Of a DNA stretch of 64,000 nt, positions 1-27,578 are shown piece after piece. The DNA comes from Gemmatimonadota bacterium (GTDB lineage: Bacteria; Gemmatimonadota; Gemmatimonadetes; Palauibacterales; Palauibacteraceae). The notes below the pieces were generated by a model. That model saw nothing but the letters and a program-made list of their open reading frames with translations. It had not been told where the DNA came from and ran no database searches. How positions within the stretch are numbered: the stretch's first letter is position 1; each line of letters begins with the position of its first letter. The translations under genes were made by a program, and so were the position numbers. The stretch spans positions 1 to 64,000 of the forward strand of contig JAJDWE010000084.1 of assembly GCA_022825725.1 (NCBI GenBank), written 5' to 3'.

Positions 1-79
1 GACTGCGGCCCTCCATGAGGCTGTCGAGAAGCTCGTTCACCTCCCGCTCGGTCGCATCCTTCTTCTTCTTCCCGGCCAT
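1..79 (-). CDS. Transposase N-terminus, IS256/Mutator-like (partial, runs off left edge)
   Basis: Only the first 26 codons are in the window. The ATG at 79 has a strong Shine-Dalgarno (AGGAGG on the minus strand, 85-90, five bases from the start), which marks a real gene start. The peptide opens MAGKKKKDATEREVNELLDS and continues LMEGRS. A lysine-rich start followed by a short helix resembling 'LLDxLLEGR' is usual for IS256-family transposases, but the catalytic DDE part lies outside the window. Just upstream (115-142) is a sequence like an IS256-type terminal repeat, as expected for an element whose transposase reads leftwards. The family call rests on a short stretch and is tentative. Confidence 0.5.
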   Translation of the reverse strand, partial: MAGKKKKDATEREVNELLDSLMEGRS

Positions 80-114
80 GGTCTCCTCCTGCTTCCAGAG
101 TCTACTCCATGGCC

Positions 115-142
115 ATTTACACAGAAATCAGCACACTCCCCC
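115..142. repeat. Candidate terminal inverted repeat of the IS256-like element
   Basis: On the minus strand this reads GGGGAGTGTGCTGATTTCTG then TGTAAAT and lies 36 bases upstream of the transposase ATG. IS256-family ends characteristically carry a TGTGTAAA-type block close to the tip. It abuts directly on the IstB reading frame that resumes at about 143. The partner repeat and the target duplication would lie left of the window, so this is unconfirmed. Confidence 0.45.
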
Positions 143-667
143 CTGGCCACGAGCGCCTTCGTGCGCGAGGCCGACAACGTGCTCTTCATGGGCCCGCCCG
201 GCGTCGGCAAGAGCCACCTCGCCGTGGCGCTCGGCGTGAAGGCCATAAAGAACGGGTTCAGCACCACCCACTTCCTCCTCGATGACCTGATGCACGTGCT
301 CAAGGGAGACGCGGCGGTCCCACCCCGAAGGCTCACGGCCAAGCGCTACCTGAACAGCGCGCTGCTCGTTATCGACGAAGTGGGCTTCCGGCCCCTCGAC
401 CGCCAGGAGGCCAACCTCTTCTTCCGCCTCGTGAGCGCGCGCTACGAGAAGGGCTCGATCATCCTCACCTCCAACAAGCACGTGCGCGACTGGCCCGAGA
501 TCTTCGCCGGCGACGAGATCCTCACCACCGCGATCCTCGATCGCCTGCTGCACCACGTACACATCATCCACATCGACGGCCGCAGCTACAGGCTCCGAGA
601 GATCGACGGCCTCCTCAGGCCGACCAACCCCGCTCCCGCGCAAGGAGGTGACATCCAGACCGCTTGA
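143..667 (+). pseudogene. istB: IstB-like ATP-binding protein of an IS21-family element, 5'-truncated
   Basis: IstB is the AAA+ helper ATPase that works with the IstA transposase of IS21 elements. The frame is open from 143 and shows Walker A GPPGVGKS (179-210 region), Walker B LLVIDEVGF, sensor-like IILTSN, and the C-terminal AILDRLLHH block typical of IstB. Complete IstB proteins have roughly 70-90 more residues ahead of this point; here they are missing and replaced by the IS256-like end at 115-142. The first in-frame start is GTG at 161, which would give 168 residues. No istA is present in the window. Most likely a remnant cut by a second insertion sequence. Confidence 0.75.
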
Positions 668-1089
668 AGATACCTGCGTGCGTAAAGTCCGAGTGTCGTT
701 CTACAACCGCGGATCGTGGACGTCTTGGGGCTACGTGGTGACTGCCCTCTCATCCTGGCCTCATGCTCGAGTTGGTGGGCTTGAGACCGGGTCATAGATT
801 GGCCGGCACCGCGACACGGCGCGGGATGGTCTCATGCAAAGGGGCGAATGGGAGCCATCGGCACGCCGGATCCGTGTGACGGCAGTGCGAGATGCAAGGC
901 CGGCGCACTCAGAGCGGCAACACGTTGCGCGGTTGGATGGGACCACGAGGCCGGGTGACACCGCCCTTCGCCCTCTCGCGAGCACGCGGGATTCGAGCGG
1001 GTTACACGACATCTGCGGTTGTGTTTTCTTCGCGGGATTCGGACGAAACCCGTTGAGAGATTCTGGCAAGGGGACACGAGGTCAACGAA
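668..1089. other. Intergenic stretch, no gene recognised
   Basis: About 420 bases between the istB remnant and the DUF4145 gene. Several overlapping open frames cross it on both strands, but none has a recognisable product or convincing start. It should contain the other end of the IS21 element; I could not define that end by eye. Confidence 0.4.
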
Positions 1090-1725
1090 ATGGAAACTGT
1101 CCGAGCAACACAGGGATCGCCCCATCATGGACCAACGGTACGCGTCCGGTGTCCGGCCTGTCGACAGCGGGCGACCTTCGACAGGTTGGGGTCGGATCTC
1201 CAAGTGGGAAATCGAGACGGACAGGCACTCGTAGCGGGGCAGAGAGCGTGCCCGGATCCGGAGTGTCACGCTCACCTGTTCTTTATCAGCGCAAGAGGGA
1301 CACTGTTGGTAACGTACCCACCTGAGACGATCGATTTCGATTCCACCGGCTTGCCGCCCGGAGTACTGGGTGCGTTGGAGGAAGCCATCACATGCCACGC
1401 AAACGGTGCCTTCTTTGCGGCCGCGGTCATGGTTCGTAAGACGCTGGAAGAGCTGTGCCGGGATAGGAATGCGGAGGGAGACAATCTATATAGTAGAATA
1501 AAAGCTCTGCGTGGCTCGGTGATACTTCCCGATCAACTACTCGACGGACTCGATGACTTGCGGCTGTTGGGCAATGATGCGGCGCACGTGGAACTGAGAA
1601 CCTACGAAAACGTCGGTCGGGAGGAAGTGGAGATAGCGCTTGAGCTTACGAAAGAAATCTTGAAGGCAGTGTACCAATTTGAGCATTTGCTCCACAGGCT
1701 CCGATCGCAGAAGAAGAACGACTGA
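1090..1725 (+). CDS. DUF4145 domain-containing protein with zinc knuckle
   Basis: 211 residues. The N-terminus carries two cysteine pairs, C21/C24 (CPAC) and C54/C59 (CPDPEC), forming a likely zinc ribbon. Residues about 80-205 resemble DUF4145: a helical bundle with 'FFAAAVMVRKTLEELC' and 'LRLLGNDAAHVE' motifs, the latter typical of HEPN-like folds. DUF4145 is common as a solo protein or as a domain of restriction-type enzymes in mobile islands; its biochemical role is not settled. The start is ATG 1090 with GAGG about ten bases upstream. It lies between an IS remnant and unknown genes, and likely belongs to the accessory island. Confidence 0.75.
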   Translation: METVRATQGSPHHGPTVRVRCPACRQRATFDRLGSDLQVGNRDGQALVAGQRACPDPECHAHLFFISARGTLLVTYPPETIDFDSTGLPPGVLGALEEAITCHANGAFFAAAVMVRKTLEELCRDRNAEGDNLYSRIKALRGSVILPDQLLDGLDDLRLLGNDAAHVELRTYENVGREEVEIALELTKEILKAVYQFEHLLHRLRSQKKND

Positions 1726-1789
1726 AGCTGCCGACTTGCCGTGCGCAGGTCACCTTGGCCAAGTGGAGACATGATGTCACTACTATCGA

Positions 1790-2230
1790 ATGGAGAGATT
1801 TGGCATGAGCGCCACCAACCCATTTGAGGAACTTGGGATGTGTATGGAGGAAGAGATCACGACTCTGATGGACGCCGGATATCGCGTCTCCTTGAGGCGG
1901 AACAACGAAATAGTCACTAGCGGTCTCGTCGCTGGAGACTTTTCAGTTCGGCGCGAAGTGACGGGGTCTCGATTGTTCCGGGCCACACTCACGCTTGACG
2001 GCGCGCTTGACGTTCGGCTGGGGTCGCCAAACGAAGACACACGTGTTCGACGCTATCGTGCCAGCGAGACGGATCACGTCTGGCAGCTCTTGTCAGATCA
2101 CAGAGGAGACACGGGACCTCTCACTTCGCGGGCACTTGCTGATGCTTGGGGCCAAGAGCTGCGGGAGTTGCTCGAGTCGTTGAACCGGCCCCGGGGTCAT
2201 CTTGGCGCAATCGTCACGACTGAAGAGTAG
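1790..2230 (+). CDS. Hypothetical protein
   Basis: 146 residues from ATG 1790, or 141 from ATG 1805. I do not recognise it. It is soluble and acidic, with no signal peptide or membrane segment. The central part (about 40-110) looks like alternating strands, and the last 45 residues look helical (LADAWGQELRELLESLN). It sits 64 bases after the DUF4145 gene on the same strand, and codon use is less GC-rich than in the core part of the window. Confidence 0.5.
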   Translation: MERFGMSATNPFEELGMCMEEEITTLMDAGYRVSLRRNNEIVTSGLVAGDFSVRREVTGSRLFRATLTLDGALDVRLGSPNEDTRVRRYRASETDHVWQLLSDHRGDTGPLTSRALADAWGQELRELLESLNRPRGHLGAIVTTEE

Positions 2231-2276
2231 CCCCTGCCTCAGCGAAACCCACGCTGGCGAGACGGGTGCCTCGTCG

Positions 2277-3041
2277 TCAATCCCGAAGCGTTTGATGGAA
2301 TTCGTCAATTGTTGTGATCGCCGCCCCGCCGATGTTGACGGCGAGGGTGCGCGCGCAATTCAGGATCCTCGATCGAGTGTCCTTGTCCAGACCGAGAAGG
2401 ACGGCGCCTAGACCGGCGACTGCAGAGAGTGGCCCGGCGAGTTCGTTCACACAGACAAGAATCCCCTCCGCCTGCGGTTGGCTGCGGGAAAACGGAATAC
2501 CCAGGACGTTGTGAGACTGGGGAACCGTGTGCGGTCCGACGTGGGTGGCGCGGGTGCTGAGCAGCGCATAGCGCTCTTGTGTGATGACGGGAGCGTGCGA
2601 GAGCTTCTCAAGTCGTTTTCGAACCTTATAGGGGGAGAAATCGTGGCGTACCTTCTGATCTGTAGCATCGCGCCACTCGTCTAGGGCTGATCTGTCCACG
2701 GTGAAGAGCTGCATGAGGTTTGCAGTCTCCCCAATGGCGCGGGAGAGAGCCAAGGACTCGTCGTAGCAGCCAAAACGAAGAAGTCTGACGGCTGCGCGGG
2801 CGTTGTTGAAGGCTCGTCCACAGAGGTATTCGATGCGGTGGTCGCCGCCTCGGCATACCCACCAGCAGGAGGCCATTCGGTCGAGAAGCGACATGACTGT
2901 ACCGACGTGGACCATGGTTGCCGGAGCTTTCTTGCCTAGGTTGGGCAGAAGGGCATCGGTCTCGGTTTGACATTCGTCTTCCTGGCGCCACACCAGTTCA
3001 AGGAAGTCTCGACCTTCCGGGACATCGGTGTCGTGGTTCAT
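2277..3041 (-). CDS. Hypothetical protein, mostly helical
   Basis: 254 residues with no family I can name. It is predicted largely helical, with segments such as 'NNARAAVRLLRFGCYDESLALSRAIGETANLM' (positions about 77-110) that resemble HEPN/DUF5677-like helical proteins found in defence islands; that likeness is by eye only. No signal peptide. Start ATG 3041. It converges with the plus-strand gene ending at 2230 and is followed upstream (3042-3334) by about 290 bases with no recognisable gene. Confidence 0.5.
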   Translation of the reverse strand: MNHDTDVPEGRDFLELVWRQEDECQTETDALLPNLGKKAPATMVHVGTVMSLLDRMASCWWVCRGGDHRIEYLCGRAFNNARAAVRLLRFGCYDESLALSRAIGETANLMQLFTVDRSALDEWRDATDQKVRHDFSPYKVRKRLEKLSHAPVITQERYALLSTRATHVGPHTVPQSHNVLGIPFSRSQPQAEGILVCVNELAGPLSAVAGLGAVLLGLDKDTRSRILNCARTLAVNIGGAAITTIDEFHQTLRD

Positions 3042-3334
3042 TGGCGTCTCCTATGATCCCTGTACGTGACGGTGGGGCAGATCGTTGGGAAGCTGTAGTT
3101 CCGCTCTCTCCTGCATTGAACGATACAGCTAGCGGATTCCCCATCGGCGGCTGGCCGCGCCGAACGAACGGCCATTCCAGAAGACCCAGGGCCGTGGGCA
3201 ACATCTTGGACACTGCACTGCGCGCCTTACGGGAAGCCTCCCGCAGCCCCGCGCTACCTGCCGCCGCTGGGAGAGTAGCTGTCACCCCGCCACGCCCTCA
3301 ACGGGTCGTGACGCGAGATGCGGGTGTCGACCAT

Positions 3335-3570
3335 TCAGTTCTCGGCGACGAACGGCGGACGCTTTAGCCGAGCAGGGTCCTGGACCACAACAAGGACGCG
3401 ATCCTTAGCCCGGGTAATCGCGTTGTACAGCAAGCGTCGCTGACGCTCGATGGTGCCAGCGATCTCGTAGGGCCATAGCACGATGACCGAGTGAAATTCG
3501 CGATTCTTCGCCTGATGGATCGTCATCGCCCGAACTCCGCGCGGTCTCACCCGACGATAGGCCCTCGAAC
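3335..3570 (-). pseudogene. C-terminal piece of the UvrD-like helicase, out of frame
   Basis: This frame encodes the missing end of the helicase that starts at 4619: 'RGVRAMTIHQAKNREF' (helicase motif V region) and 'RRLLYNAITRAKDRVLVVV' (motif VI, with the arginine finger region), then ends at 3335. The upstream gene runs into a different frame and loses these motifs after about 3570. Fusing the two requires a +1 shift (one extra base, or two missing) between about 3545 and 3570. I see no obvious slippery site, so a true mutation and a sequence error are both possible. Confidence 0.7.
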
Positions 3571-4619
3571 GCCGGTGGATTACGGCGTGCCTCGCGCTGG
3601 ATTTCGCTAACTGTAAGAGTTGTCCTTCCGGCGACGCGCCTTTGTCGGTCGATCCAACGACGAAGGCCGCGTCGGGGCCCACTGACATCATCGAACGAAA
3701 GCTCATCGCAGCGGACCTCACTGTCGGGCTCATCGGGCAGTTCAAGCTGTGCGATGAACTTGTCGCACTCTCCTTCCTGAGACTCCTCCCATGGAACATG
3801 ATGCGGGCCTGTAGCGCGCTTCCCGATCGGCTTTTCCGCTACGCGAGCGAACAAGTTACGTACGAATGTGGACCTGGACGGCCGTACCGGAGTTAGGACG
3901 GCGATGTCCGCACAGCTCCTCCACCACGTAAGGCTATTGGAAACGAAGCTAGCCCCGACGTTCGCATTCGGTGCACCCAGCACCGTTAGGCCCTTCCCTC
4001 TATCGGGAACATTGCCCCCGGATCGGAAGGCTTGACTCGCGCCCAACAGACCCGCTGCCGAGGTCCGGTGAATCTCCCTCAAGTTCTCGCTGTCGCCATT
4101 GGTCCGTGCCCACGTGACCGCTGGATTCACCCCGGTGTTCTCCAAGTCCTGAAAAGAATCGGCCGCTAGGATGCATGTCGCCACGTCGGAGAGCGAGGAA
4201 ATCATCTTCAGTTGCCCACTCGTGCTATCCTGAAACTCGTCGACAACAAGGACCGGGAATGCTTGGCCAACCCAGCGCGAAACGGTCGTCTCCGCCAGCA
4301 GATCACCGGCGAGCGAACAAACCTGCTCGTAGTCATCCTCGGCCAGCTCCGCCGCGGACCTTTTTCGAGCGAGCGTTCGCCAGCGCCGCACGATTCTCCA
4401 TGCAAAGCTATCGACCGTAGAGCAACGGTACCGTCCTCGAAGGCCTGGAACTCCCCGAAGTTGGTCACCCATGCGCCGCCTTGAGCCGTGCATTCTGGTC
4501 AGTGCGAGGACTCGCTGATGCTCCGCCAGCGGATAGGCCTCCAGCACATGCTTCAATTCCTGAAACAGGCGGGTTGTCTTGCCGGTCCCGGCGGGACCTT
4601 CGATCAAGTAACTACTCAC
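3405..4619 (-). CDS. UvrD/Rep-like helicase, GajB-like, frameshifted near its C-terminus
   Basis: Superfamily 1 ATPase/helicase partner of the OLD nuclease at 4616-6454. Walker A GPAGTGKTT is at residues 8-16, motif Ia-like LALTR at 38-42, and Walker B DEFQD at 127-131. The start ATG overlaps the nuclease stop codon by four bases (ATGA), so the two are translationally coupled. As read, the frame continues to 404 residues, but the last ~55 are nonsense relative to the family; motifs V and VI are found in another frame at 3335-3570. A repaired protein would be about 428 residues, near the size of compact GajB-type helicases. OLD plus UvrD is the Gabija / class 2 OLD arrangement. Activity is doubtful if the frameshift is real. 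Confidence 0.75.
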   Translation of the reverse strand: MSSYLIEGPAGTGKTTRLFQELKHVLEAYPLAEHQRVLALTRMHGSRRRMGDQLRGVPGLRGRYRCSTVDSFAWRIVRRWRTLARKRSAAELAEDDYEQVCSLAGDLLAETTVSRWVGQAFPVLVVDEFQDSTSGQLKMISSLSDVATCILAADSFQDLENTGVNPAVTWARTNGDSENLREIHRTSAAGLLGASQAFRSGGNVPDRGKGLTVLGAPNANVGASFVSNSLTWWRSCADIAVLTPVRPSRSTFVRNLFARVAEKPIGKRATGPHHVPWEESQEGECDKFIAQLELPDEPDSEVRCDELSFDDVSGPRRGLRRWIDRQRRVAGRTTLTVSEIQREARRNPPAFEGLSSGETARSSGDDDPSGEESRISLGHRAMALRDRWHHRASATLAVQRDYPG

Positions 4620-6454
4620 GGCTGGAGACGAAGGACGGTCGAGTTCGGAACGCTGTGGTCTTCGTCCCTATGGACCAAGTCGCAACCTTCCTCTCGCCTT
4701 AGCGTGGCGAGCGTGACTGCCTCCAGCAAAGCTGCGGCGCGAGCGCGGCAGCCAGGAAGGCGGCCGATGACCGATGCCACCTCCTCATAGGCGAGATAAT
4801 CGGTTTTTAGACGACCGACACCAGTCTTGACCTTGAATAGATCGACCAATTCGTCGATAGATTCGAAATCACAATTGATTCGGTCCCGCAGTTCGGTGAG
4901 CGCATCGCTTTCTTCGCCCTCAAGGATCCAACCAATTACATCCTCCATGGTCCAGTCGTCGCGCCATCTCAAAATGATCTTCGGCGTCGCGTGGGAAGCG
5001 CGGAGCTGGTCGACCTTCTCGGCTCCGGCAGCATCCCCGTCCACGAGAGGGACCAGTCCACGTCGAAGGATCCGCAGAGCGTCGTATACGTCTGCGATCG
5101 CTCCGTCATGAGTCGGCACCACACCGACCACGGTCCCGAAGGCGGGCGTGTCGGCATCAGCGTCCTCGGGCACCATCTCCGCAGTCTCGAGCACATCGCT
5201 CAGCAGCCGGAACCACTCGTACTCGCTGCGCCCTTCGGGGATGAGCATACGGTGGTACATCAGTGCCTCGACGATCCGTGCACGATCGTCCAAGAAGAGT
5301 TTCCGACGCGCGTTCGTCGCACTGTCTTCGAGAGGTGTTGCCAGCATGGGAGTCGCGGCGAGACTCTCCGTGCCGCGATCGAGAATCTGAACGGAGGTCG
5401 CCGGGTAGTAGGCGGCGACGCGCGGCGAGTGGCTGGTGCAGATCGTCTGGTCCGCGATGGAAACGGCCTGGGAAATCAGTCGACGCTGCATGCCCGGCGG
5501 AATGTGCAACTCGGGCTCCTCCATCGCGAACAGGAAAGGCTTGCCCATGCGCACCCGCTCTCGTCCAAGCTCGAGCAACAGAATGAACGTCTGAAGCGAG
5601 AGCAGGCCCATCCCATGCCGCCCCACCGGGAGCGAAACACCTTCGCTGACGGCGTAGTGCGGAACGAGTGCGCGAAGTAGTGATTCGGAGTCCGTGGCTG
5701 TAAGCCTTAGCTGAAAACGTGGTGCGTCGGGCAACAGCTCGGCCAACTGCCGGTTCATGCGCTCTACCAACGGAGCGAGCCCAGCCGCTTCCTCTAGCGG
5801 TGCGGCGGGGGCGCGCAGCCGATCACGCTCTTGGAGAACCGTCTGCGCCGGGATGCCTCCCACCGTGGCAACCGCTTTGCGAAATAGCTCCGAAGCGAAC
5901 GAAACGGCTCCTCCCCAGGTGCGACGAGCCATCAGGACGTAGTATCCGATCTCGTCAAAGAGCCGAGTCGGAATCGGCTGAACAGCATCGTCCAGGAATG
6001 GATCTTCAACGTCATCATCATCATGGAAATAGCGGATCGATTCAATCGCTAACTCCTCAAGATCGAAACGCGCAGCGAAGGCAACCTGCGCGCAGAGGAC
6101 CTTCGATTGATCGCCCCGCTCCGCTTCTACTTCACCTGTCGATGAGTTCCACCACTTGGGGACTGCTCTTCCTTCCCGGAACCAGGTGTCGTTCCGCTCC
6201 GGGTCATCGCCATCGAATCCCGCCAAAGTAGCAACGACGCGGATGCGACTGGTCGCTTCAGGACGGCTTCCGTAGAAGTCGTGTTCCGTGAGATCGCGCA
6301 CTAGGCCGGTGCGGCCGAAGACGAGCGATAGGGCGTCGATGATCGTGCTCTTACCCGCACCGTTGGGCCCTACCAGCACATCATGCTGACCAAAACGCAA
6401 GTCGGCTCGCTGAACGCCGCGGAACCCACTTATCGAGAGAGCCAGCAGCTTCAT
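4616..6454 (-). CDS. OLD-family ATP-dependent endonuclease (AAA ATPase plus TOPRIM), GajA-like
   Basis: 612 residues. The ABC-type ATPase comes first: Walker A GPNGAGKST at 29-37, a signature-like GRHGMGLLSLQT near 278-289, Walker B FLFAMEEPEL at 307-316, and an H-loop CTSHS at 339-343. A C-terminal TOPRIM nuclease follows: LIPEG with catalytic E407, then VDGDAAG with D472 and D474. This is the architecture of class 2 OLD nucleases and GajA, which cut DNA and are paired with a UvrD-like helicase in antiphage systems. Here the helicase follows with a 4-base overlap. A 35-codon frame overlaps its start by four bases. All key residues look intact, so the nuclease half may still function even though the helicase frame is broken. 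Confidence 0.88.
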   Translation of the reverse strand: MKLLALSISGFRGVQRADLRFGQHDVLVGPNGAGKSTIIDALSLVFGRTGLVRDLTEHDFYGSRPEATSRIRVVATLAGFDGDDPERNDTWFREGRAVPKWWNSSTGEVEAERGDQSKVLCAQVAFAARFDLEELAIESIRYFHDDDDVEDPFLDDAVQPIPTRLFDEIGYYVLMARRTWGGAVSFASELFRKAVATVGGIPAQTVLQERDRLRAPAAPLEEAAGLAPLVERMNRQLAELLPDAPRFQLRLTATDSESLLRALVPHYAVSEGVSLPVGRHGMGLLSLQTFILLLELGRERVRMGKPFLFAMEEPELHIPPGMQRRLISQAVSIADQTICTSHSPRVAAYYPATSVQILDRGTESLAATPMLATPLEDSATNARRKLFLDDRARIVEALMYHRMLIPEGRSEYEWFRLLSDVLETAEMVPEDADADTPAFGTVVGVVPTHDGAIADVYDALRILRRGLVPLVDGDAAGAEKVDQLRASHATPKIILRWRDDWTMEDVIGWILEGEESDALTELRDRINCDFESIDELVDLFKVKTGVGRLKTDYLAYEEVASVIGRLPGCRARAAALLEAVTLATLRREEGCDLVHRDEDHSVPNSTVLRLQP

Positions 6455-6558
6455 CCGGAGTCAGCGCAAGTCGAAGGAACGTTGCACTCCCGAACCTCGA
6501 TGAGCTCCGCGATGCTGCTCATTGGGTCCTCGAGCGGATAGAGTGTCTCTTTGTGCAT
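6451..6558 (-). CDS. Short ORF coupled to the OLD nuclease start
   Basis: A 35-residue frame from ATG 6558, beginning MHKETLYPLEDPMSSIAELI. Its TGA overlaps the nuclease ATG (ATGA at 6451-6454), the same arrangement as between the nuclease and the helicase. It could be a leader peptide that feeds ribosomes to the nuclease, or the tail of a decayed gene. The rest of the interval up to about 6749 holds no other frame I would trust. Unrecognised. Confidence 0.35.
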   Translation of the reverse strand: MHKETLYPLEDPMSSIAELIEVRECNVPSTCADSG

Positions 6559-6749
6559 GGGCGCCGTCAAGGTGGTACTCCGTCACGAGCCGTCTGTTAC
6601 TTGGATTGCCTCGGGTGTGCGCTCCTCGCCGGCCGTAGACAAGGGAAGTCCGGCATCTCGCTTGAGTGCCTCCGTTCCCACGCCGCAGTGAGATAGCCAC
6701 CCTCAAGCCGCTCCGCCGTTGCGTATCATACAGTACAGCCCGCACCGTG

Positions 6750-7280
6750 TCACTCCCGATCAACGAAGCAAACTGCGTGCACGCAGCGATGGTATCCGAA
6801 GCGCCTCCTCTGGGTCTCTGGAGGAGGGAACACAAAGAATCGCAGGTCATACCAACCGGGAGAAAGATCCTGATCCAACGGTACCGAGCAAGTCACCTTC
6901 TCGTCGCGAATACCAAGTTGCTCGGAACAGAAGAAGGGCAAAGGAATGACTCGCAAATCGTCGCGATTAAACTGCTTGCACTCCAAGTCTTTCAACCTGA
7001 TGATGTCATTTGTGGATTCTAATCGCTCTGTCATTTGATTGCTGATGCACTCAACAAAATCTGCATCTGGCGAAGATACAATCAAGCACGCCCAATCGAT
7101 TTTGCGGCGATAAACGGACTTGCTTTCCAAAGCAAGCTTCGCAACAGGGCGACCTCGAATACTTGTCACTTCTAGCGAACAGACAACGTAGCCGCGACGC
7201 CACTCGAGAAGTCTCGGAGCGGCAACAACGATCGCAACGACTACGCCCAAAACTGCAAAAACAATCTCGGCTGGTGACAT
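6750..7280 (-). CDS. Hypothetical membrane-anchored protein
   Basis: 176 residues from ATG 7280 (GTG 7295 is an alternative). One hydrophobic segment at about residues 4-21 (IVFAVLGVVVAIVVAAP) is followed by an arginine-rich stop-transfer stretch, so the protein is probably N-terminally anchored with the remainder cytoplasmic. The body contains 'SLEVTSIRGRPVAKLAL' and looks beta-rich. I do not recognise the family. It lies upstream of the OLD/helicase pair on the same strand, about 190 bases from the short coupled ORF, so it might be an accessory gene of that module. Confidence 0.5.
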   Translation of the reverse strand: MSPAEIVFAVLGVVVAIVVAAPRLLEWRRGYVVCSLEVTSIRGRPVAKLALESKSVYRRKIDWACLIVSSPDADFVECISNQMTERLESTNDIIRLKDLECKQFNRDDLRVIPLPFFCSEQLGIRDEKVTCSVPLDQDLSPGWYDLRFFVFPPPETQRRRFGYHRCVHAVCFVDRE

Positions 7281-7439
7281 TACGGCACATTTCACGTTCG
7301 TGGGTTCTCACGTACCAACACAATTGGCGGCGACACCGCCCACGCATCCTCTTCGTTCGTATCGTAACATCGTGATGGGATCGCTCTCAAGGAGTGTAGA
7401 GAAACGGTATCCACCTGAAACCCGACCGCCCCGAGGTCG

Positions 7440-7614
7440 GCGCTGGAGGTAGACCTTGCCCACGCCCTTCAGCGTACCCGCGAAGAAGGTGTCCACGGCC
7501 ACAAGCTCACCGGTCTTCTTCACTTTGCTGTGATGATCCCGGTACTCGGGGTCGAAGCGCTCCAGCGCGAGGATCTGTTCCTCGGTGAGCTCGAAGTCGC
7601 GCTCGCGGACCGTC
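7440..7614 (-). pseudogene. Transposase fragment, integrase-core type (IS481/IS3-like)
   Basis: The minus strand encodes 'FELTEEQILALERFDPEYRD' followed by 'GELVAVDTFFAGTLKGVGKVYLQ'. The second block is a close match in pattern to the start of the rve integrase core, where the first catalytic Asp sits in 'V(G/A)xDTF(Y/F)VGTLKGVGxVY'. The similarity stops at about 7440 and the frame then runs into unrelated sequence. Only about 58 codons survive, so this is a dead remnant. The neighbouring bases 7621-7838 contain no intact gene. Confidence 0.6.
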
Positions 7615-7838
7615 TGGGTTGACCGGCGAACTCTGGCTTCCTCAGCCGGAGGATGCGGGAGAACGCTGGTCGACGCGGCTCATTGACGGTCGGCTCGCGA
7701 GCTACGGTGCCTGCTACCTCCCGCGCGGCGGCATTTCACGCTGCCCAGGCGCCACAATGCCCGCGACCCCGGCACGGTGGACCAGATGAAGGATCTGGTC
7801 GCGAAGATGGTCGGGGAAGCGGTTGATGTGGAGCGACC

Positions 7839-8123
7839 TTATCCAGAACTAGGTTGTGTCAGCCAGTAGCACTTCGTACCACCGGTCACATATCCGCTTG
7901 AGACCTGCGCGTGGAGGGTCTCTTCGAGTAGGTGATACAAGGGATTCGTACCCTTGGGCGGTTGTCCATGGGCCGTAAGCAGCCTCTGGAGTTGCCGTCG
8001 TGTCAATCCATCCTCACCGGCCTCAGCGAGGAACGCCAGTACCAGTTTCATCTCGACCAGCTTGTCAACCTCGGCCACGATCTTCGCAGTCTGCGCCTCG
8101 ACCGGACTTCTACTCGACATCAA
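7839..8123 (-). CDS. Hypothetical small protein, possibly winged-helix
   Basis: About 94 residues (TTG at 8123, or ATG one codon later). The central 'EDGLTRRQLQRLLTAHG' and 'NPLYHLLEETLHAQVSSGYV' segments have a helix-turn-helix spacing seen in small winged-helix proteins, suggesting DNA binding, but no family can be named. It lies among transposon debris. The absence of a clear ribosome binding site lowers confidence. Confidence 0.4.
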   Translation of the reverse strand: MMSSRSPVEAQTAKIVAEVDKLVEMKLVLAFLAEAGEDGLTRRQLQRLLTAHGQPPKGTNPLYHLLEETLHAQVSSGYVTGGTKCYWLTQPSSG

Positions 8124-8337
8124 CGGACTCCATATGAAGGGGGGACTTGAAAGAGGGTTGGATTAAAAAGGTGCGGCGGGGCTCGCCTGTGTGGCGTGGG
8201 CAACGGTCCTAGCCGGGATTCGTGGTTTCGACTCCTACCTTCGTCGCACCTGGATGCGTCTTGGCGACTGGCTTCTTCGGTTTGATGTAGGGCTCCGCGC
8301 GACGTAGCAACGCCTTCGCCAACCGCTCCGGCGTGAC

Positions 8338-8397
8338 GTCACCAAACCGTACCGAACCATGCCAAACCCGACCGAGCCCAACCAAACCAAGCCGCAA
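8338..8397. repeat. Degenerate short-period repeat (accaaacc/ccgaacc type)
   Basis: Roughly every 5-6 bases a variant of ccaaac, ccgaac or ccgagc recurs on the plus strand, for about 60 bases. The unit is imperfect throughout. I see no function; slippage-derived low-complexity DNA is the simplest reading. Confidence 0.5.
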
Positions 8398-8951
8398 GTT
8401 TTCGGATTTTCTTCCTCTTGGGTAAACACACCAAGCCCACAATACCTGACCCTTGGCTCGTGCTGCAAGCCAGTGGAGTTGTCCTGCTTTCACGGACGGT
8501 TGGATTTCTGTGATTGATCGTCTCCGGTTCTTCTCCTTTCCGCCTCTCGCGGCCGCTCGAGAGAGGTCGTCCGCGGGCGCCGCGGGCGCTGCCTATTCCA
8601 ACGGAGCCGTCCATCGATTCCGAGCGAGGCCGGCCGGGGACCGGGGCGGTCCTGAAGCGGCACTGGACACGGATCCGATGGGACCGCCGACGACAAGGGT
8701 TCGGGTCCGCAGCGCTTTGCGTACTCCGAACTTCGTCGAGACGCCGCCCGTGCGTGCGAGGCCACTTCTCGCAAGTTGACCTGCTACGCTAGGATCAGCG
8801 CGTAACAGAAAAGAACGGGGTACGAGATTCGAAAGGCAGGCCTTCGAGGCGCTCCGGTCGCGCCCGGCTGCACCCGGAAACCGAAGCAACCCCCGGACGC
8901 CATCGGTACGGACCAAGCCCGGGTGTTTCGAGGAGAGCGGCGTTATGTTGG

Positions 8952-8991
8952 GCGAACCCATCCCTAGGTTTGCGAACCCATCCCTAGGTTT
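8952..8991. repeat. Exact tandem duplication of a 20-bp unit
   Basis: Two perfect, adjacent copies of a 20-bp unit that starts gcgaacccat and ends ccctaggttt (8952-8971, 8972-8991). Each contains the palindrome cctagg. The repeat ends 11 bases before the ATG at 9003, at the head of the radical SAM/ATPase/DGQHR cassette, so it may be an operator. A simple slippage duplication is the alternative. Confidence 0.7.
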
Positions 8992-9002
8992 GGAGAGAGA
9001 CC

Positions 9003-9191
9003 ATGGCGGTTCCATCCGTCAGCGTAAGGGGCGTGCTGATCGATCACTGCGCCAGCCGGCTCGCCATCCTGACGTTGCCGGATTACCATGAGCCGTTCGA
9101 GGCGCTCATGGAACGGTGCTCCGTGAGCGAGGTGCGCACGACAACCCTGCTGGCGACCGACAGATACGATACGACCGACGGAGGAAGGTAA
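9003..9191 (+). CDS. Small ORF heading the radical SAM cassette
   Basis: 62 residues from ATG 9003, preceded by GGAGAGAGA at a suitable distance, which supports translation. The sequence (begins MAVPSVSVRGVLIDHCASRL) matches no family I know. It ends 15 bases before the radical SAM start on the same strand. It could be a small cassette component, or a residue of an upstream regulator. Confidence 0.4.
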   Translation: MAVPSVSVRGVLIDHCASRLAILTLPDYHEPFEALMERCSVSEVRTTTLLATDRYDTTDGGR

Positions 9192-9206
9192 ATTGCAGCC
9201 GAACCC

Positions 9207-10853
9207 ATGACCAAACGGAACATCCTCCTAATCGAACCCGGATACCGCAACAAGTATCCGCCGCTCGGCTTGATGAAGATCGCTGCCTACCACGGACCGC
9301 ATGGCCGCGGCGATAACGTTGTGTTCGTCAAGGGCCACGAGCCGGAGGTCCTCGGCCAGGTCTGGGACCGCGTTTACGTTACGACGCTCTTCAGCTTCGA
9401 GTGGAAACGAACATCGGCCGCTATCGATTTCGCGATCAGCGCCGCGAGGGGACAAGCGGAACGCGTCTTCGTTGGCGGCATCGCCGCGAGCCTGATGTTC
9501 GAGGACTTTGTCAAAGAGCCACGCTGGGCCGGTGTCCGCTTCGTTAAAGGATTGCTCGACCAGCCCCCGCCGACGTCCCTGCAGCTGTCGGTGGTCGATG
9601 GCGACTTCGGCGCCGACGACACCGTCGGGACGCCGATCGAAGAGCTTGTCCCAGACTACAGCATTCTCGAACAGGTCCCCTACACTTATCCCGTACGCGA
9701 TGCCTATTTCGGATATGCGTCGCGGGGCTGCATTCGCAAGTGTTCGTTTTGCGGCGTGCCAAAACTCGAAGGTGCTCAACGGGAGATGCCGCCGCTCTTG
9801 GGCCTCGTCGCCGGCGTGGACGCCGAGTTCGGTCCCAAGAAAGATCTAATCCTCATGGACAACAACGTCGTAGCAAGTTCTCGATACAAGGAGGTCATAG
9901 CGGAGATTCGAGATCTAGGTTTCCACGGCGGTGCTGTTTTGGAACGACCAGGCTCGCCGGGTGTCAAGCGACGGGTCGACTTCAACCAAGGTGTCGACGC
10001 ACGTATTCTTGCTAAGACCTCGATGTACTTGCGCGAAATGTCCACGATCTGCATCGACCCACTCCGTATCGCCTTCGACCACGTAGGGATGCGCAAAGTG
10101 TACGAGAGAGCCGTGGAAATGGCGGCGGACCACGGACTGACATCTCTTTCGAATTACATGCTATACAACTTCATGGATACGCCGCGGGATCTCTACGAGC
10201 GCATGAACATCAACATTGCGCTCAACGCGCGCCTTGGCGTCCAGATCTGGTCTTTTCCAATGCGCTATTTGCCGGTAACGATGAAGGATCGGTCACATGT
10301 CGGCAGGCACTGGAGCCGCTATTACTTGAGATCTTTCCAGATCATGCTCCAGGCGACGCACGGCGTCGTGTCCGGCAGCCATAACTTTTTCCTGCGAGCC
10401 TTCGGCAACAGCTACGAGGAATTCGAGAAACTGCTAGCACTGCCGCATGCCTTCATCTTCCACCGTAACTACTACGAGCACGGCGAAGGTAGGCCCGTTC
10501 TAGACGAATACAACGCACTCCTAGGTCGTCTGAACAGTGAACAACGAAATGAACTCATCGAGCTGCTTAGCGGTGTCTTGCTGATGCGCCCACGACGCGA
10601 AGCCTTTTTGGAGCTGGCCTCGGACAAGTCTGTTTCGGGTCTCATCCGCCAACTCGTACCCTTCCATGCAATCGATACCAAGGCGCCAAAGGTCACCAAC
10701 ATTGCGCAGGCATTCCCCGAGCTAACGCCTCACCACATACTTCCGGAACCCGAAGCCTTAGTCGAGGACGCGGGCCTCTACGAACCCCTGGACGAGCCGT
10801 TAGACCAGCAGGACCCCACTCCCCTGCAGCCAGTTGGCCCAGGCGTCGACTGA
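9207..10853 (+). CDS. Radical SAM protein with N-terminal B12-binding-like region
   Basis: 548 residues. The radical SAM cluster motif is CIRKCSFC, with C175, C179 and C182 binding a 4Fe-4S cluster that cleaves S-adenosylmethionine. The first ~150 residues, with 'IEPGYRNKYPPLGLMKIAAY', have the layout of the Rossmann-type cobalamin-binding domain seen in B12-radical SAM enzymes, but the DxHxxG cobalamin motif is not apparent, so B12 dependence is uncertain. The remainder is a TIM-barrel-like region and a helical C-terminus ending in an acidic tail. Its stop overlaps the ATG of the ATPase gene (TGATG at 10851), so the two are almost certainly co-translated. Substrate unknown; nucleic-acid or peptide modification is conceivable. 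Confidence 0.8.
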   Translation: MTKRNILLIEPGYRNKYPPLGLMKIAAYHGPHGRGDNVVFVKGHEPEVLGQVWDRVYVTTLFSFEWKRTSAAIDFAISAARGQAERVFVGGIAASLMFEDFVKEPRWAGVRFVKGLLDQPPPTSLQLSVVDGDFGADDTVGTPIEELVPDYSILEQVPYTYPVRDAYFGYASRGCIRKCSFCGVPKLEGAQREMPPLLGLVAGVDAEFGPKKDLILMDNNVVASSRYKEVIAEIRDLGFHGGAVLERPGSPGVKRRVDFNQGVDARILAKTSMYLREMSTICIDPLRIAFDHVGMRKVYERAVEMAADHGLTSLSNYMLYNFMDTPRDLYERMNINIALNARLGVQIWSFPMRYLPVTMKDRSHVGRHWSRYYLRSFQIMLQATHGVVSGSHNFFLRAFGNSYEEFEKLLALPHAFIFHRNYYEHGEGRPVLDEYNALLGRLNSEQRNELIELLSGVLLMRPRREAFLELASDKSVSGLIRQLVPFHAIDTKAPKVTNIAQAFPELTPHHILPEPEALVEDAGLYEPLDEPLDQQDPTPLQPVGPGVD

Positions 10854-12313
10854 TGGCCGCGAACCCAACTGTCGGGGGTGATCTCCTCCGCTTGATTACC
10901 GCCGGGATGTATGACAGCCCCCTCATCCTTTACAGGGAATACCTGCAGAATGCTGCCGACGCGATCGCGGCTCAAGGTAGTGGAACCGTCCACGTCATGA
11001 TCGACCGCATTCGATCACAGGTTGCGATAAGAGATGACGGCACGGGCCTATCTCCCAAGGAGGCGTCGCGCCGCCTCATCGATGTTGGTTGCAGTGACAA
11101 GGTTCGTACGTTGGACCGTGGTTTTCGCGGCATCGGCCGACTGTCAGCCCTTGCTTTCGCGGAGCAGGTTCGGTTCACGACGCGGACGTGCGCAACAGAG
11201 CCCGTGACGGAGGTAACATGGAACGGAGAAACGCTGCGCGACTCAAACCTGGCACAAGTCGATGTCGCAACGGCTATTGAGCGCTGCACCACGATACGAC
11301 AGCTTCTTCACGGCGACTGGCCGGAACGGTTTTTTGACGTCACGATCGACCGCATCCACCGACATGCTGCCTCGGCGCTATTGAACGAGGATGATGTCAG
11401 ACGCTACATCGGAGAAGTATGCCCTGTACCACTGGCGAACGCCTTTCCACTTGCAAGCCGGATCCGCGAGTTTCTCACCACGCACACCGACCACCTCGTG
11501 CTCGATGTTCGCGTCAACGATCACGACTCTCCGGTTAAGCGACCGTTTGGAAAGACCATCCCGTTGACCGACAAGTACAACGCCGCTTTCGAGCGTCTCG
11601 AGACGCACGTCATTCCCGCAGTCGACGGAGACGAGCCAGCTGCCATCGTGTGGCTGGCTCATACACCGTACGCTGGCTCCATACCACGCCGCGTCGGTGT
11701 CCGCGGTCTTCGCGCCCGCGTAGGGAACATCCAGATCGGCAGCGACCGCATCTTCGAGCACCTCTTCCTCGAACCGCGATTCAACGGATGGTGCGTCGGG
11801 GAGGTCCATATCTTGGACGAACGCGTTGTCCCGAACGGTCGGCGCGACTACTTCGAGCCCAGCCCTCATCAACGCAACCTAGAGAACCACATTGGGGCCA
11901 TCGCCCATGAGATCAGTTCGCGATGCCGCCGGGCCTCATCTCAGCGAAATCGGCTTCGCCACATTGGCGTCGCCATCAATCGGCTCAGGCGTGCGCGCGA
12001 CTTCGCGGTTTCCGGCTATCTGCAGCCCGAAGATGCCATCGCCCTAGTCGAGCGGGAGCGCCAGCGCATCCCCGAGATCAAGCAGATACTCACGACGCTT
12101 GGAGCTGTCACATCAACGTCCGACCAGGAGGAGCTTGCCAGTTTCGAGAATCAACTAGAGGATATCGAGGTCAATCCTGAGCCAGCACTGAACGGCGTAC
12201 CGTCCGACTCCGTAGCGACGATCCAAGCTGCTTTCGGTGCAATCGTCGAAGCCATGCCTTCTGATTCTGCCTATGACATCGTCGAGATCATCCTTCGCCG
12301 CCTGTCTCGGTAA
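10853..12313 (+). CDS. GHKL/HSP90-type ATPase
   Basis: 486 residues. The N-terminal ATP site is clear: N-box REYLQNAADA at 28-37 (metal-binding N33, D36), G1 box DDGTGLS at 61-67, and G2/lid GFRGIG at 90-95. This is the pattern of HSP90, MutL and MORC-like ATPases and not of histidine kinases, since there is no H-box. The rest has a middle domain with 'LRARVGNIQIGSDRIF' and 'NGRRDYFEP' and a helical C-terminus. Such ATPases clamp or remodel other macromolecules and recur in defence islands. Start ATG 10853 overlaps the radical SAM stop by one base. A 253-base gap follows before the DGQHR gene. Confidence 0.82.
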   Translation: MAANPTVGGDLLRLITAGMYDSPLILYREYLQNAADAIAAQGSGTVHVMIDRIRSQVAIRDDGTGLSPKEASRRLIDVGCSDKVRTLDRGFRGIGRLSALAFAEQVRFTTRTCATEPVTEVTWNGETLRDSNLAQVDVATAIERCTTIRQLLHGDWPERFFDVTIDRIHRHAASALLNEDDVRRYIGEVCPVPLANAFPLASRIREFLTTHTDHLVLDVRVNDHDSPVKRPFGKTIPLTDKYNAAFERLETHVIPAVDGDEPAAIVWLAHTPYAGSIPRRVGVRGLRARVGNIQIGSDRIFEHLFLEPRFNGWCVGEVHILDERVVPNGRRDYFEPSPHQRNLENHIGAIAHEISSRCRRASSQRNRLRHIGVAINRLRRARDFAVSGYLQPEDAIALVERERQRIPEIKQILTTLGAVTSTSDQEELASFENQLEDIEVNPEPALNGVPSDSVATIQAAFGAIVEAMPSDSAYDIVEIILRRLSR

Positions 12314-12566
12314 TCCCATCGGGGACCGACTTGCTACCCAGCTCCCCGAGCGCTTCATCGCGGTCTCAGAGGGTGGAATCCCGTCGGAAGAACGGCAATT
12401 CACCGGCGCCGGCCTCCGGAGTCACCGCATCAACTCATCGTCGCACTCCGCTGTGCTGCGCGACAATCTTGCTGGCGACCCACGACGGTTGCTCCCGGCT
12501 CGTGACCTCACACTCGATCAGGCTATCCTCCGTTAACCGCCTACTGCGTGAAAGGCGACCCACGGC
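12314..12566. other. Gap between the ATPase and DGQHR genes
   Basis: 253 bases on the same strand between cassette genes. A 79-codon frame (12331-12570) crosses it but is Ser/Thr/Arg-rich and looks like noise. I see no terminator hairpin, so the DGQHR gene may be cotranscribed. Confidence 0.3.
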
Positions 12567-13631
12567 ATGACCGACAAACATGAGTACCTAGGCCCCCTCG
12601 TCGTCGGAGACGCGATCAAGACCGAACTGCGGCGGCGGAGGCAGACGGACGAGTATCAGACCGTTAAGGGCTCGACGAAGAAGCTCATCGCTGACAAGGT
12701 CAAGCTCGAGGAGGCCGACGGTTGGCGAGTGTTCAGAAAGAACGTCAAGTCAACTCGGATGGCCAAGGCGAAGCCTGCGGACGAGCAGCTTGAAGACGAG
12801 GTCTGGTGCATCTTGGCGCAAATGGGCTTCAAGGAGATGAGCGAAGGCCGCCAGTTCACGATCGTCGTCGACGATGGCTTGCCACCACGTCAGATCGACG
12901 CATTTGCCAAGGACGACGAGACCGTCATCATCGTCGAATGCACACGTCGCGATACGCCAGGCAAGCGGAGCATGCTCCCACTCATCGAGAAAATCCAGGC
13001 AATACGCGAGGGCCTCCACAAATCGATCCTCAACGCCTACGGTCGAAAGCCCAAACTCAAGGTCAAACCGGTCATCGCTACGAGGAACATCGCATGGAGC
13101 GCCGTCGATCTTGAGAGATGCACCAGCGCAGATATCGGCGTGCTCACGGACGGCGAACTTGACTACTATTTGCAGCTTGTAAAGCACCTCAAACAGGCCG
13201 CGCGTTACCAGTTTTTGGGGCATATCTTTGGCGGTCAGAAAATCGACGGTCTAACCCGGAAGGTGGTAGCGACCAGAGGAAAAATGGGCGGCGATACCTT
13301 CTATACGTTCCTCATCCGACCCGATGAGCTTCTGAAGATCGCCTACGTCGGCCACAAGGCCAGCCGAGACATCGAGAATTTAGCGACATACCAGCGTATG
13401 CTCCAACCGCACCGGCTAAAAAAGATCGCCAAGTACATCAATGAAGGTGGGAAGTTCCCTACGAACATCGTGGTGAACCTAAAAACAAAGAAGGGAACCA
13501 AGCTACGGTTCGAAGATAAGGAAAAGCACGGTGACGAGACCTGGGGCACAACTGTACCTGCCGCCGACTTACGCTTCGGCGTGGATCATCGACGGTCAGC
13601 ACCGACTCTACGGTTATGTCTATGCACGTGA
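12567..13631 (+). CDS. DGQHR-domain protein, N-terminal part (nuclease-like), before frameshift
   Basis: Residues 1 to about 325 of this frame are the genuine start of a larger protein. Residues 75-126 have the outline of a PD-(D/E)xK nuclease fold: a helix with EDEVW, then 'RQID' with D111, then 'IIVECT' with E124. The usual lysine after E-x is threonine here (T126), so cleavage activity is doubtful. From about 215 the DGQHR/DndB-like region begins ('FLIRPDELLKIAYVGHK'). At the GGGG run 13543-13546 the frame departs from the family, and the last ~30 residues are spurious. Removing one G joins it to the frame at 13531-14892, giving about 775 residues. Confidence 0.72.
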   Translation: MTDKHEYLGPLVVGDAIKTELRRRRQTDEYQTVKGSTKKLIADKVKLEEADGWRVFRKNVKSTRMAKAKPADEQLEDEVWCILAQMGFKEMSEGRQFTIVVDDGLPPRQIDAFAKDDETVIIVECTRRDTPGKRSMLPLIEKIQAIREGLHKSILNAYGRKPKLKVKPVIATRNIAWSAVDLERCTSADIGVLTDGELDYYLQLVKHLKQAARYQFLGHIFGGQKIDGLTRKVVATRGKMGGDTFYTFLIRPDELLKIAYVGHKASRDIENLATYQRMLQPHRLKKIAKYINEGGKFPTNIVVNLKTKKGTKLRFEDKEKHGDETWGTTVPAADLRFGVDHRRSAPTLRLCLCT

Positions 13632-14892
13632 AGCCGGGGGGTTCAAGGACGATTCGACCATGTTGTCCGTGCTCGCCTACGAGAACCTTCCATCCGAGAA
13701 GGAAATGAACCTGTTCATCGACATCAACAGCAAACAGGTCAAGGTGCGCACTGCCTTGCTGGTTGAACTTTATGCAGATCTCCATTGGCGTTCTTCCGAT
13801 CCGGCTGAAGCACTTCAGGCGCTACACTCTCGTATCGCGTCACGCCTGAATAGCACCAAAACGTCACCTCTCCACGAACGCATGGTCGTAACCGGAAAAC
13901 GGAAGACTAACTATCGCTGCTTGACCACGACGTCAATTCAGGCCGGCCTCCGCGTTGCTAACCTGTTGGCGACGTCCAGCAAAGGTGTTGTCCTTCCCGG
14001 CCCGCTGTCCACGGCCAAATCGGACGACTATGAGGCGAACCTCAGGAAAGCACTGGCGGTGCTGTCAGACTGCTTGGAGATGTTCGCGACGGAGCTGTCG
14101 ACTCACTGGCAACTCGGCGACGCACCAGGAGGATATCTGTGTACGAACAACGGCATCCGAGCACTGTTTCACGTCATCAAAGACATCACGGATCATGTCC
14201 GACAGGATGACGGAGTGGATTTGTGCCGGTTGGATGCTGACGAGACCTTCGCGAAAATTGAGCCATATCTTGAAGTGTTGACCGACTACTTTAGGAGTGC
14301 ATCGGCGCAAGAGATTCGAGCGTTTAGACGCATTGGCTCGTCACTGACAGCTGTTCGGCAACAGGCCTATGGTCTAGAAGCGCAGATCAACAAGACGATT
14401 GATACGTTCAGGCCGCCGGGACTAATGGAGTACTTGGCATCCCGTGATGAAGTGGGCACGGAAGAGGCAGCCGGCAAGGTGACGAAGATTCACCGCCAGC
14501 TCTTCGACTACGTCATCGGGACGCTGAAGGATCACTACGGTAAGCAGAATAAGGCGTGGTGGATCGAGGGTGTTCCCGTGGGAATCCGAAAGAACTGCAC
14601 GACCGCGTGGGAAGAAAAGAACCGTGAAGGTAAAGAAGAATCCAATCTTTACCTAATCGATTACGTCGATATTTGTATCAATAATTGGCATTTGGTGAAG
14701 GATGTGATTTCCCTGGGTGCACGGGACAAGGAAAACAAGAAGGCGAACACGAAATGGATCAAGGAACTTAATGAGATCCGCAAGATCACGACCCATCCGG
14801 AGCGTGGTGTTCTCAGCAAGGATCAGGTCGCGTTCGTAAACGAATACCACGACAAAATCGATAAGTTCTTTCCGAGTGTACAAGTACAGTAA
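13531..14892 (+). CDS. DGQHR-domain protein, C-terminal part (DndB-like), after frameshift
   Basis: The literal DGQHR motif occurs in 'AWIIDGQHRLYGY', about 20 codons into this frame, followed by 'EMNLFIDINSKQVKVRTALL', both hallmarks of the DGQHR family that includes DndB. DndB regulates or assists phosphorothioate DNA modification; relatives occur in 7-deazaguanine DNA-modification clusters and in stand-alone islands. The remaining ~330 residues are helical, with 'RKITTHPERGV' near the end. Real coding in this frame starts at about 13544; the upstream part belongs to the preceding frame. The gene probably encodes one protein with the 12567 frame. No dnd or dpd genes are in the window. Confidence 0.75.
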   Translation: MTRPGAQLYLPPTYASAWIIDGQHRLYGYVYAREAGGFKDDSTMLSVLAYENLPSEKEMNLFIDINSKQVKVRTALLVELYADLHWRSSDPAEALQALHSRIASRLNSTKTSPLHERMVVTGKRKTNYRCLTTTSIQAGLRVANLLATSSKGVVLPGPLSTAKSDDYEANLRKALAVLSDCLEMFATELSTHWQLGDAPGGYLCTNNGIRALFHVIKDITDHVRQDDGVDLCRLDADETFAKIEPYLEVLTDYFRSASAQEIRAFRRIGSSLTAVRQQAYGLEAQINKTIDTFRPPGLMEYLASRDEVGTEEAAGKVTKIHRQLFDYVIGTLKDHYGKQNKAWWIEGVPVGIRKNCTTAWEEKNREGKEESNLYLIDYVDICINNWHLVKDVISLGARDKENKKANTKWIKELNEIRKITTHPERGVLSKDQVAFVNEYHDKIDKFFPSVQVQ

Positions 14893-14990
14893 TCACCTGA
14901 CACCCGCACTCGGCGAGGTGAGCGCTTCAGGCGACCGTCGTCACCTACGAAGCGTGCGTTCTTTGATGCCGCGGGCGCGGGGGGGCGTGT

Positions 14991-15066
14991 GAACTTGGCG
15001 ATGCGCGGTCCGCTTCGGGGCCGCTGCGTCACCGAGCTTGGGCATGGTACAGGCGCGCGGTTGAAG
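14991..15066 (-). repeat. Copy A of the tRNA-associated hairpin element (diverged)
   Basis: On the minus strand it has the same order of blocks as copies B and C: a TTCAACCG box, then GGTGACGCAGCGGCCCCG, then a 3' arm ending CATCGCCAA. The hairpin arms pair imperfectly. Unlike B and C it is not followed by the tRNA-Ile acceptor strand, but by a C-run (ACACGCCCC). It lies just after the DGQHR gene. Confidence 0.55.
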
Positions 15067-15240: not shown

Positions 15241-15316
15241 GAGGCGACTTGGTCATCCGTGAGGTCGGTCCAGGATTGGGACCGGGGCGAGGCTTGGGAT
15301 TCGGTAGGAGATTGAG

Positions 15317-15384
<68 letters not shown>

Positions 15385-15391
<7 letters not shown>

Positions 15392-17393: not shown

Positions 17394-17462
17394 GGTGAAA
17401 ACCGTCCCTCGAGGGGTCCCCTTCGATTGCCGCCGCCAGCCGGCCGATCTAGCTTCACTCGC

Positions 17463-18482: not shown

Positions 18483-18532
18483 CCGAACGCGACAACCGAA
18501 TCTGACACGCCTGGCCGGACAGGGTCGCCTGG

Positions 18533-22009: not shown

Positions 22010-22119
22010 CGGTTCGGCGCCTCTCCGGCCCCCCGCTGGCCGGATCACCGTCCGCGGGCCCATTTTGTGCGGTCAGCCGACGGATGGATGTCGGCTCCGG
22101 GACCGAGAGATGATCGCGT

Positions 22120-25606: not shown

Positions 25607-25657
25607 TCGCGCGGCACGCTGCCGCCCGGAACGCATCCGCCCAAAGCGGGTAAAACG

Positions 25658-27544: not shown

Positions 27545-27578
27545 ATAGGCCCCTGGCGGCCGGGTAGCTGGGGGACGC

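What the first reader, a model, noticed from the sequence alone, without database searches (positions are those of the whole stretch)
3335..6558. Gabija-like class 2 OLD nuclease/helicase pair with a +1 frameshift removing helicase motifs V-VI
The nuclease has intact ATPase and TOPRIM residues, while the helicase splits between 3545 and 3570. A living nuclease with a broken helicase would say something about decay or partial function of the pair.
Basis: partly seen in the sequence, partly recalled or inferred. Interest (0 to 1): 0.5.

Follow-up and report, generated by a model that had tools for sequence, protein, structure and literature searches.

The report
Anti-phage gene pair, freshly broken helicase
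A bacterium carries a horizontally acquired Gabija-type anti-phage gene pair whose nuclease gene looks whole but whose helicase gene appears to have been knocked out of frame very recently, most likely an ordinary early step in the decay of a defence island.

Summary
On the minus strand an OLD-type nuclease (6454-4616) is followed, with a 4-base overlap, by a UvrD-like helicase (from 4619) whose frame changes near 3580; helicase motifs V and VI lie in another frame, ending at 3335. Four close relatives (nuclease 78-91% identical) have one uninterrupted 427-codon helicase; the window differs by a single one-base gap. The pair matches PADLOC GajA and GajB profiles. It lies in a low-GC island (59% against 70%) beside tRNA-Ile; the nuclease was found in none of 99 other related genomes searched. 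dN/dS in both helicase halves resembles that among intact relatives, so the break is very recent, or an assembly error. A screen of about 47 kb of host backbone found no one-base coding frameshift private to this genome (planted controls: 35 of 64 found), while a second island gene (DGQHR/DpdB-like) is frameshifted too; this favours island decay over a poor assembly, but reads were not available. Most likely verdict: a Gabija-type pair inactivated by recent helicase loss. Ordinary; no evidence for a programmed frameshift or a new function.

The parts
4616..6454 (-). GajA-like OLD-family nuclease, 612 aa (ABC-type ATPase, then TOPRIM)
   Evidence: Pfam AAA_15 2.7e-16; PADLOC GajA PDLC00086 9.4e-46 over residues 1-426; dN/dS 0.11-0.15 against L002-L005
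6344..6370 (-). Walker A of the nuclease (residues 29-37, GPNGAGKST)
   Evidence: G29, N31, G34, K35, T37 invariant in 12 of 12 aligned proteins
5504..5536 (-). Walker B region of the nuclease (residues 307-317, FLFAMEEPELH)
   Evidence: E312-E315 and H317 invariant in 12 of 12; aligns with solved GajA chain 8wy4
5222..5236 (-). TOPRIM glutamates E407 and E411
   Evidence: Align with E379/E383 of GajA chain 8wy4; E407 invariant in 12 of 12, position 411 is D or E or other in relatives
5033..5041 (-). TOPRIM D472-G-D474
   Evidence: Invariant in 12 of 12; equivalence to the DxD of GajA inferred from the pattern, not aligned here
3405..4619 (-). GajB-like helicase, frame a (404 codons; residues 1 to about 346 collinear with relatives, the rest out of frame)
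   Evidence: PADLOC GajB PDLC04173 2.1e-20 over residues 5-172; tblastn
4227..4241 (-). Helicase Walker B DEFQD (residues 127-131), retained in frame a
   Evidence: D127, E128, Q130 invariant in 11 of 11 relatives
3575..3590 (-). Junction where the helicase frame changes (net one base more than in four relatives)
3335..3580 (-). 3' end of the helicase gene in frame b, carrying motif V (about 3523-3494) and motif VI (about 3436-3410); motif names recalled
   Evidence: UvrD_C_2 1.2e-13; 79-86% identity to L002-L005
6451..6558 (-). 35-codon ORF overlapping the nuclease start; possibly the remnant of an upstream gene
   Evidence: Similar ORF in L002; L003 has a methyltransferase with an S24-like end at this place
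12567..14892 (+). Second frameshifted gene of the same island (DGQHR/DpdB-like), context only
   Evidence: Homologue in pNL1 is one ORF of 769 aa; the window matches it in two frames that switch at 13547-13552
15316..15391 (-). tRNA-Ile at the right border of the island

Best explanation
This is a Gabija-type defence pair (OLD nuclease GajA plus UvrD-like GajB) that reached this genome by horizontal transfer inside a tRNA-Ile-linked defence island, and whose gajB was broken very recently by a one-base frameshift. In a working system (established for other Gabija systems, not tested here) GajB docks on a GajA tetramer and its ATPase site is needed for defence. Here translation in frame a would give a protein with the first RecA-like domain and the DEFQD box (shown) but without motifs V and VI, hence (inferred) unable to hydrolyse ATP productively. 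The system is therefore most likely inactive and at the start of decay; the nuclease ORF is whole only because too little time has passed.
For: One indel in 1,285 bases against four relatives. dN/dS of the window helicase against L002-L005 0.19-0.22 (residues 1-345) and 0.14-0.15 (last 80), against 0.20-0.26 and 0.11-0.18 among those four intact relatives. Gabija profiles matched by both genes. Both genes whole in 19 of 21 other loci examined. Island: GC 59.0% against 70.0%; the pair's stretch unmatched in 15 of 15 other genus genomes, backbone matched in 15 of 15; nuclease found in 0 of 99 other relatives at E 1e-30. A second broken gene in the island; no private one-base coding frameshift seen in about 47 kb of backbone. 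Literature passages: both genes needed for defence (PMC12407980; PMC10681800), mutation of the GajB ATPase site abolishes defence (PMC10822852).
Against: No reads: an assembly or consensus error at the site is not excluded. No other disabling change in the helicase. The backbone screen has only partial sensitivity (35 of 64 planted insertions found in at least one relative, 24 in at least two). In the second broken gene the switch lies beside a run of four G. By sequence profile the best solved-structure matches are not Gabija chains: TsOLD 6p74 for the nuclease and UvrD/PcrA/Rep for the helicase, with GajA at E 1e-10 and GajB at 1e-8 behind them. VD045 GajB showed no helicase activity in vitro (PMC10681800), so what loss of motifs V-VI costs is not certain.
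Confidence: 0.72

Rival explanations
1. Assembly or consensus error: the real genome has a continuous helicase frame and a working Gabija pair.
For: Both halves of the helicase evolve as if coding; it is the only disabling change found; a draft assembly of 84 contigs; a second one-base shift in the same island could reflect poor coverage there.
Against: No private one-base coding frameshift seen in about 47 kb of backbone on the same contig, with partial sensitivity, whereas the five island genes with homologues at hand (about 8.6 kb) have two; the site is not in a long homopolymer.
Confidence: 0.2
2. Partial function: the truncated GajB still docks on GajA through its N-terminal part and gives a nuclease complex with altered regulation that is kept for its own sake.
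For: In B. cereus VD045 GajB residues 1-223 bind GajA and 224-416 do not, and a complex mutated in the ATPase sites keeps nuclease activity and is more active on linear DNA (PMC10822852, passages); the window keeps frame a to residue 346. dN/dS is lower in the nuclease (0.11-0.15) than in the first 345 helicase residues (0.19-0.22).
Against: The same mutations abolish phage defence. None of 21 other loci shows a whole nuclease with a broken helicase. The same difference in dN/dS between the two genes exists among the intact relatives (0.15-0.18 against 0.20-0.26), so it says nothing about the nuclease being kept alone.
Confidence: 0.05
3. Programmed +1 frameshift, phase variation or a split helicase made from two ORFs.
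For: Both frames are open and conserved.
Against: Four close relatives encode the protein without any shift; no repeat tract at the junction, and frame a reads through it without a stop codon.
Confidence: 0.03

Closest known systems
Gabija system (GajA-GajB), Bacillus cereus VD045 and relatives
   Same: Gene order nuclease then UvrD-like helicase; ABC ATPase plus TOPRIM nuclease; helicase with Walker A and DExQD box; matches to PADLOC GajA and GajB profiles.
   Different: Distant in sequence: the PADLOC GajA match covers residues 1-426 only, and the intact helicase of the near relatives is shorter (427 aa against 493-499 in the solved GajB chains); in the window the helicase is frameshifted.
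OLD nucleases of class 2 (with a UvrD/PcrA/Rep-like partner helicase)
   Same: OLD nuclease next to such a helicase; definition as given in PMC10781630 (passages).
   Different: The best solved-structure match by profile is 6p74, the TsOLD nuclease of PMC10781630, which I recall as class 1; GajA chains follow at E 1e-10.
Nuclease-helicase pairs on rhizobial, Aminobacter, Pseudomonas putida and Robbsia plasmids
   Same: Same two genes in the same order; nuclease 39-44% identical in the six aligned.
   Different: Helicase in one frame in 14 of the 15 plasmid records examined at 80% coverage or more; in Devosia (L027) both genes are broken.

Membership tests
Gabija | Two adjacent genes, gajA then gajB | tested here: met
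   4616-6454 and 3335-4619, same strand, 4-base overlap
Gabija | GajA with ABC-type ATPase and OLD-type TOPRIM residues | tested here: met
   Pfam and PADLOC; E407/E411 align with GajA E379/E383; D472/D474 invariant in 12 of 12, but that part did not align to GajA by profile
Gabija | GajB: one UvrD-like SF1A protein with motifs I to VI | tested here: not met
   Motifs V-VI are in another frame in the window; one continuous frame in L002-L005, 4 of 4. The window copy is therefore filed as a broken copy
Gabija | 4:4 GajA-GajB complex | not testable with these tools
   The AlphaFold model of the nuclease was poor (mean pLDDT 35.9); no complex was modelled
Gabija | Anti-phage activity that needs both genes | not testable with these tools
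   Needs an experiment; reported for other systems (PMC12407980, PMC10681800 passages)
Class 2 OLD | OLD nuclease associated with a UvrD/PcrA/Rep-like helicase | tested here: met
   in the window the partner is broken

The most novel reading that the evidence does not exclude
The truncated GajB, which keeps the region corresponding to the GajA-docking part, still binds GajA and produces a de-repressed nuclease complex with a changed substrate preference that the cell retains, so that loss of helicase motifs V-VI is a route to a different defence activity rather than decay.
Probability: 0.05. Interest if true: 0.55.

Novelty: new member of a known kind. Interest (0 to 1): 0.2.

Why it matters
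If the shift is real, it is a snapshot of a Gabija-type system at or near the moment of inactivation, helicase first, inside a horizontally acquired defence island, together with a second broken gene. That fits the view that defence islands turn over quickly. It adds little to the understanding of Gabija itself unless the truncated protein proves to act.

Tried and rejected
Programmed frameshift or phase variation: rejected, since the relatives need no shift and there is no repeat tract.

A recombination joint at the frameshift: the rise in identity downstream of about 3580 is also seen, less strongly, among several pairs of relatives, as expected for the conserved motifs V-VI, so it was not taken as a joint.

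Structure prediction: the nuclease model was unusable (pLDDT 35.9); the helicase model of L002 (61.7) gave UvrD, Rep and PcrA chains first and GajB chains at ranks 21-23, used as weak support only.

Relatives in viral contigs (28 pattern matches, none confirmed) and in phage records (no match): none found. Papers: the search for Gabija with pseudogene, frameshift and defense systems gave 2 papers; passages of one (PMC9148166) described no broken GajB, the other was not opened. Passages of PMC7251935 report Ralstonia strains whose gajA and gajB are dispersed, i.e. incomplete Gabija is already in print. A search for sponge, Gabija and symbiont gave 3 papers, listing only. A search for radical SAM with DGQHR and defense gave none.

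Rows dropped: of the 45 plasmid records with a nuclease match I examined the 15 with at least 80% coverage plus H19; H16-H18, H20 and the 25 unlisted were not examined. The genome-contig scan works from short patterns (15 matches, 5 confirmed), so it is not exhaustive. Frameshift screen: 16 hits in all. The one-base hits lie at ORF ends or between ORFs (34965, 42689, 51835 and a cluster at 58756-58783, this last seen against two relatives); three longer hits inside ORFs (24083, 26712, 42214; 14-35 bases) were each seen against one relative only; the rest are longer indels at ORF ends. None was counted as a private one-base coding frameshift.

Full report
What is there. On the minus strand a 612-codon ORF (6454-4616) encodes an OLD-family nuclease; the helicase gene starts inside its last codons (GTG at 4619, 4-base overlap). 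Frame a of the helicase is open to 3405; the C-terminal helicase domain is in frame b, ending at 3335. PADLOC profiles name the two proteins GajA (9.4e-46) and GajB (2.1e-20 for frame a; 2.6e-7 for frame b).

The break. A pattern-based scan of species genomes (15 pattern matches, 5 confirmed) gave five loci with a relative of the nuclease: L002 (Gammaproteobacteria MAG, 91%), L003 (Acidobacteria MAG, 79%), L004 (Caldilineaceae MAG, 78%), L005 (Vicinamibacterales MAG, 80%) and L006 (Cupriavidus lacunae, 43%). All five have one continuous helicase ORF (427, 427, 427, 427 and 421 codons). The window gene differs from the first four by a single gap position near 3581; frame a matches them up to residue 346 and frame b from 347 or 348 on.

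Age of the break. By a Nei-Gojobori count, dN/dS of the window against L002-L005 is 0.11-0.15 in the nuclease, 0.19-0.22 in helicase residues 1-345 and 0.14-0.15 in the last 80; among the four intact relatives it is 0.15-0.18, 0.20-0.26 and 0.11-0.18. The window helicase thus looks like one that was under normal selection until very recently, or still is (if the shift is an error).

How common. Of 21 loci other than the window (5 genome contigs, the 15 plasmid records with at least 80% coverage, and H19), 19 have both genes in one frame each. In Devosia (L027) both genes are broken; in Mesorhizobium (L038) the nuclease is cut short beside IS6 transposases and no helicase match was found. No locus of the 21 shows a whole nuclease beside a broken helicase.

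Where it lies. The nuclease was found in none of 99 other relatives (100 genomes with the own one) and once in its own genome. The stretch 17001-36900 is matched in 15 of 15 other genus genomes, while of the stretch 1 to about 15,000 the same 15 show only short pieces, at 3-706 (IstB-like), 7443-7746 and 8474-8594. GC is 59.0% in 1-15000 and 70.0% in 15600-64000. A tRNA-Ile lies at the border. In G005 the same place holds other genes that match defence profiles: HEC-05 (8e-213), PifA (2e-80) and PLD/SNF2-type helicases. So the site looks like a defence hotspot, seen in two genomes.

Real or artefact. In 46-48 kb of backbone compared with four genus relatives, no one-base coding frameshift private to the window was found; a control with 64 planted insertions found 35 in at least one relative and 24 in at least two, so sensitivity is only partial. 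In the island, a second gene is frameshifted: the DGQHR/DpdB-like gene 12567-14892 matches the single 769-aa ORF of plasmid pNL1, and a 786-aa ORF of an Agrobacterium plasmid, in two frames, switching at about 13547-13562 (DpdB match). Of the five island genes with homologues at hand (nuclease, helicase, radical SAM, HSP90-like ATPase, DGQHR; about 8.6 kb) two are broken. This favours decay of the island over a generally poor assembly, but poor coverage of the island alone could give the same picture, and only reads can settle it.

Mechanism. From papers (passages only): GajA-GajB form a 4:4 complex needed for resistance (PMC10781630); GajB residues 1-223 bind GajA and 224-416 do not, and mutating the ATPase site of GajB abolishes defence (PMC10822852); both genes are required for the Pseudomonas aeruginosa PA14 system (PMC12407980, a preprint) and GajA alone cuts DNA in vitro though both genes are needed in vivo (PMC10681800). 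The last paper also reports no helicase activity of GajB in vitro, so the motifs may serve ATP use rather than unwinding. Here the DEFQD box and the N-terminal domain are kept and motifs V-VI are lost from frame a (shown); that the product cannot hydrolyse ATP and that defence is lost is inferred. Whether the truncated protein still docks on the nuclease is open.

Limits. No reads; host name unknown; the simple dN/dS count cannot date the event; the second half of the TOPRIM was matched by pattern only; the nuclease structure model failed; by profile the best solved matches are TsOLD (6p74) and UvrD rather than GajA and GajB.

Noticed in passing
window 9207-14892: Radical SAM gene, HSP90-like ATPase gene and DGQHR (DpdB-like) gene form a module also present on plasmids pNL1 (Novosphingobium) and of Agrobacterium sp. 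S7/73, there with a second, small DGQHR gene; the pNL1 one has no match in the window. In the window the large DGQHR gene is frameshifted. Function unknown.
   Followed up: partly
window 6451-6558; L003 1957-5994; L004 and L005 upstream of the nuclease: L003 has a type ISP-like methyltransferase with an S24-like end just upstream of the nuclease; L004 and L005 seem to carry remnants of it, and the window's 35-codon ORF may be another remnant.
   Followed up: partly
L026 (G005, next to tRNA-Ile): The same tRNA-Ile site in a genus relative holds genes matching HEC-05, PifA and PLD/SNF2-type helicases, so the site is probably a defence hotspot.
   Followed up: partly
window 3555-4154 against L002: DNA identity to L002 is 84-92% along the nuclease, but only 65-73% in this part of the helicase, where L002 and L003 share 80-82%: the two genes have partly different histories.
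   Followed up: partly
L004 6001-7902: The Caldilineaceae nuclease carries an insertion of about 24 residues that repeats a neighbouring stretch (GIPAKTVLQERD).
   Followed up: no
L002-L005: Near relatives of the pair (78-91%) sit in MAGs titled as Gammaproteobacteria, Acidobacteria, Caldilineaceae and Vicinamibacterales, which suggests recent transfer between distant bacteria; binning errors were not excluded.
   Followed up: no
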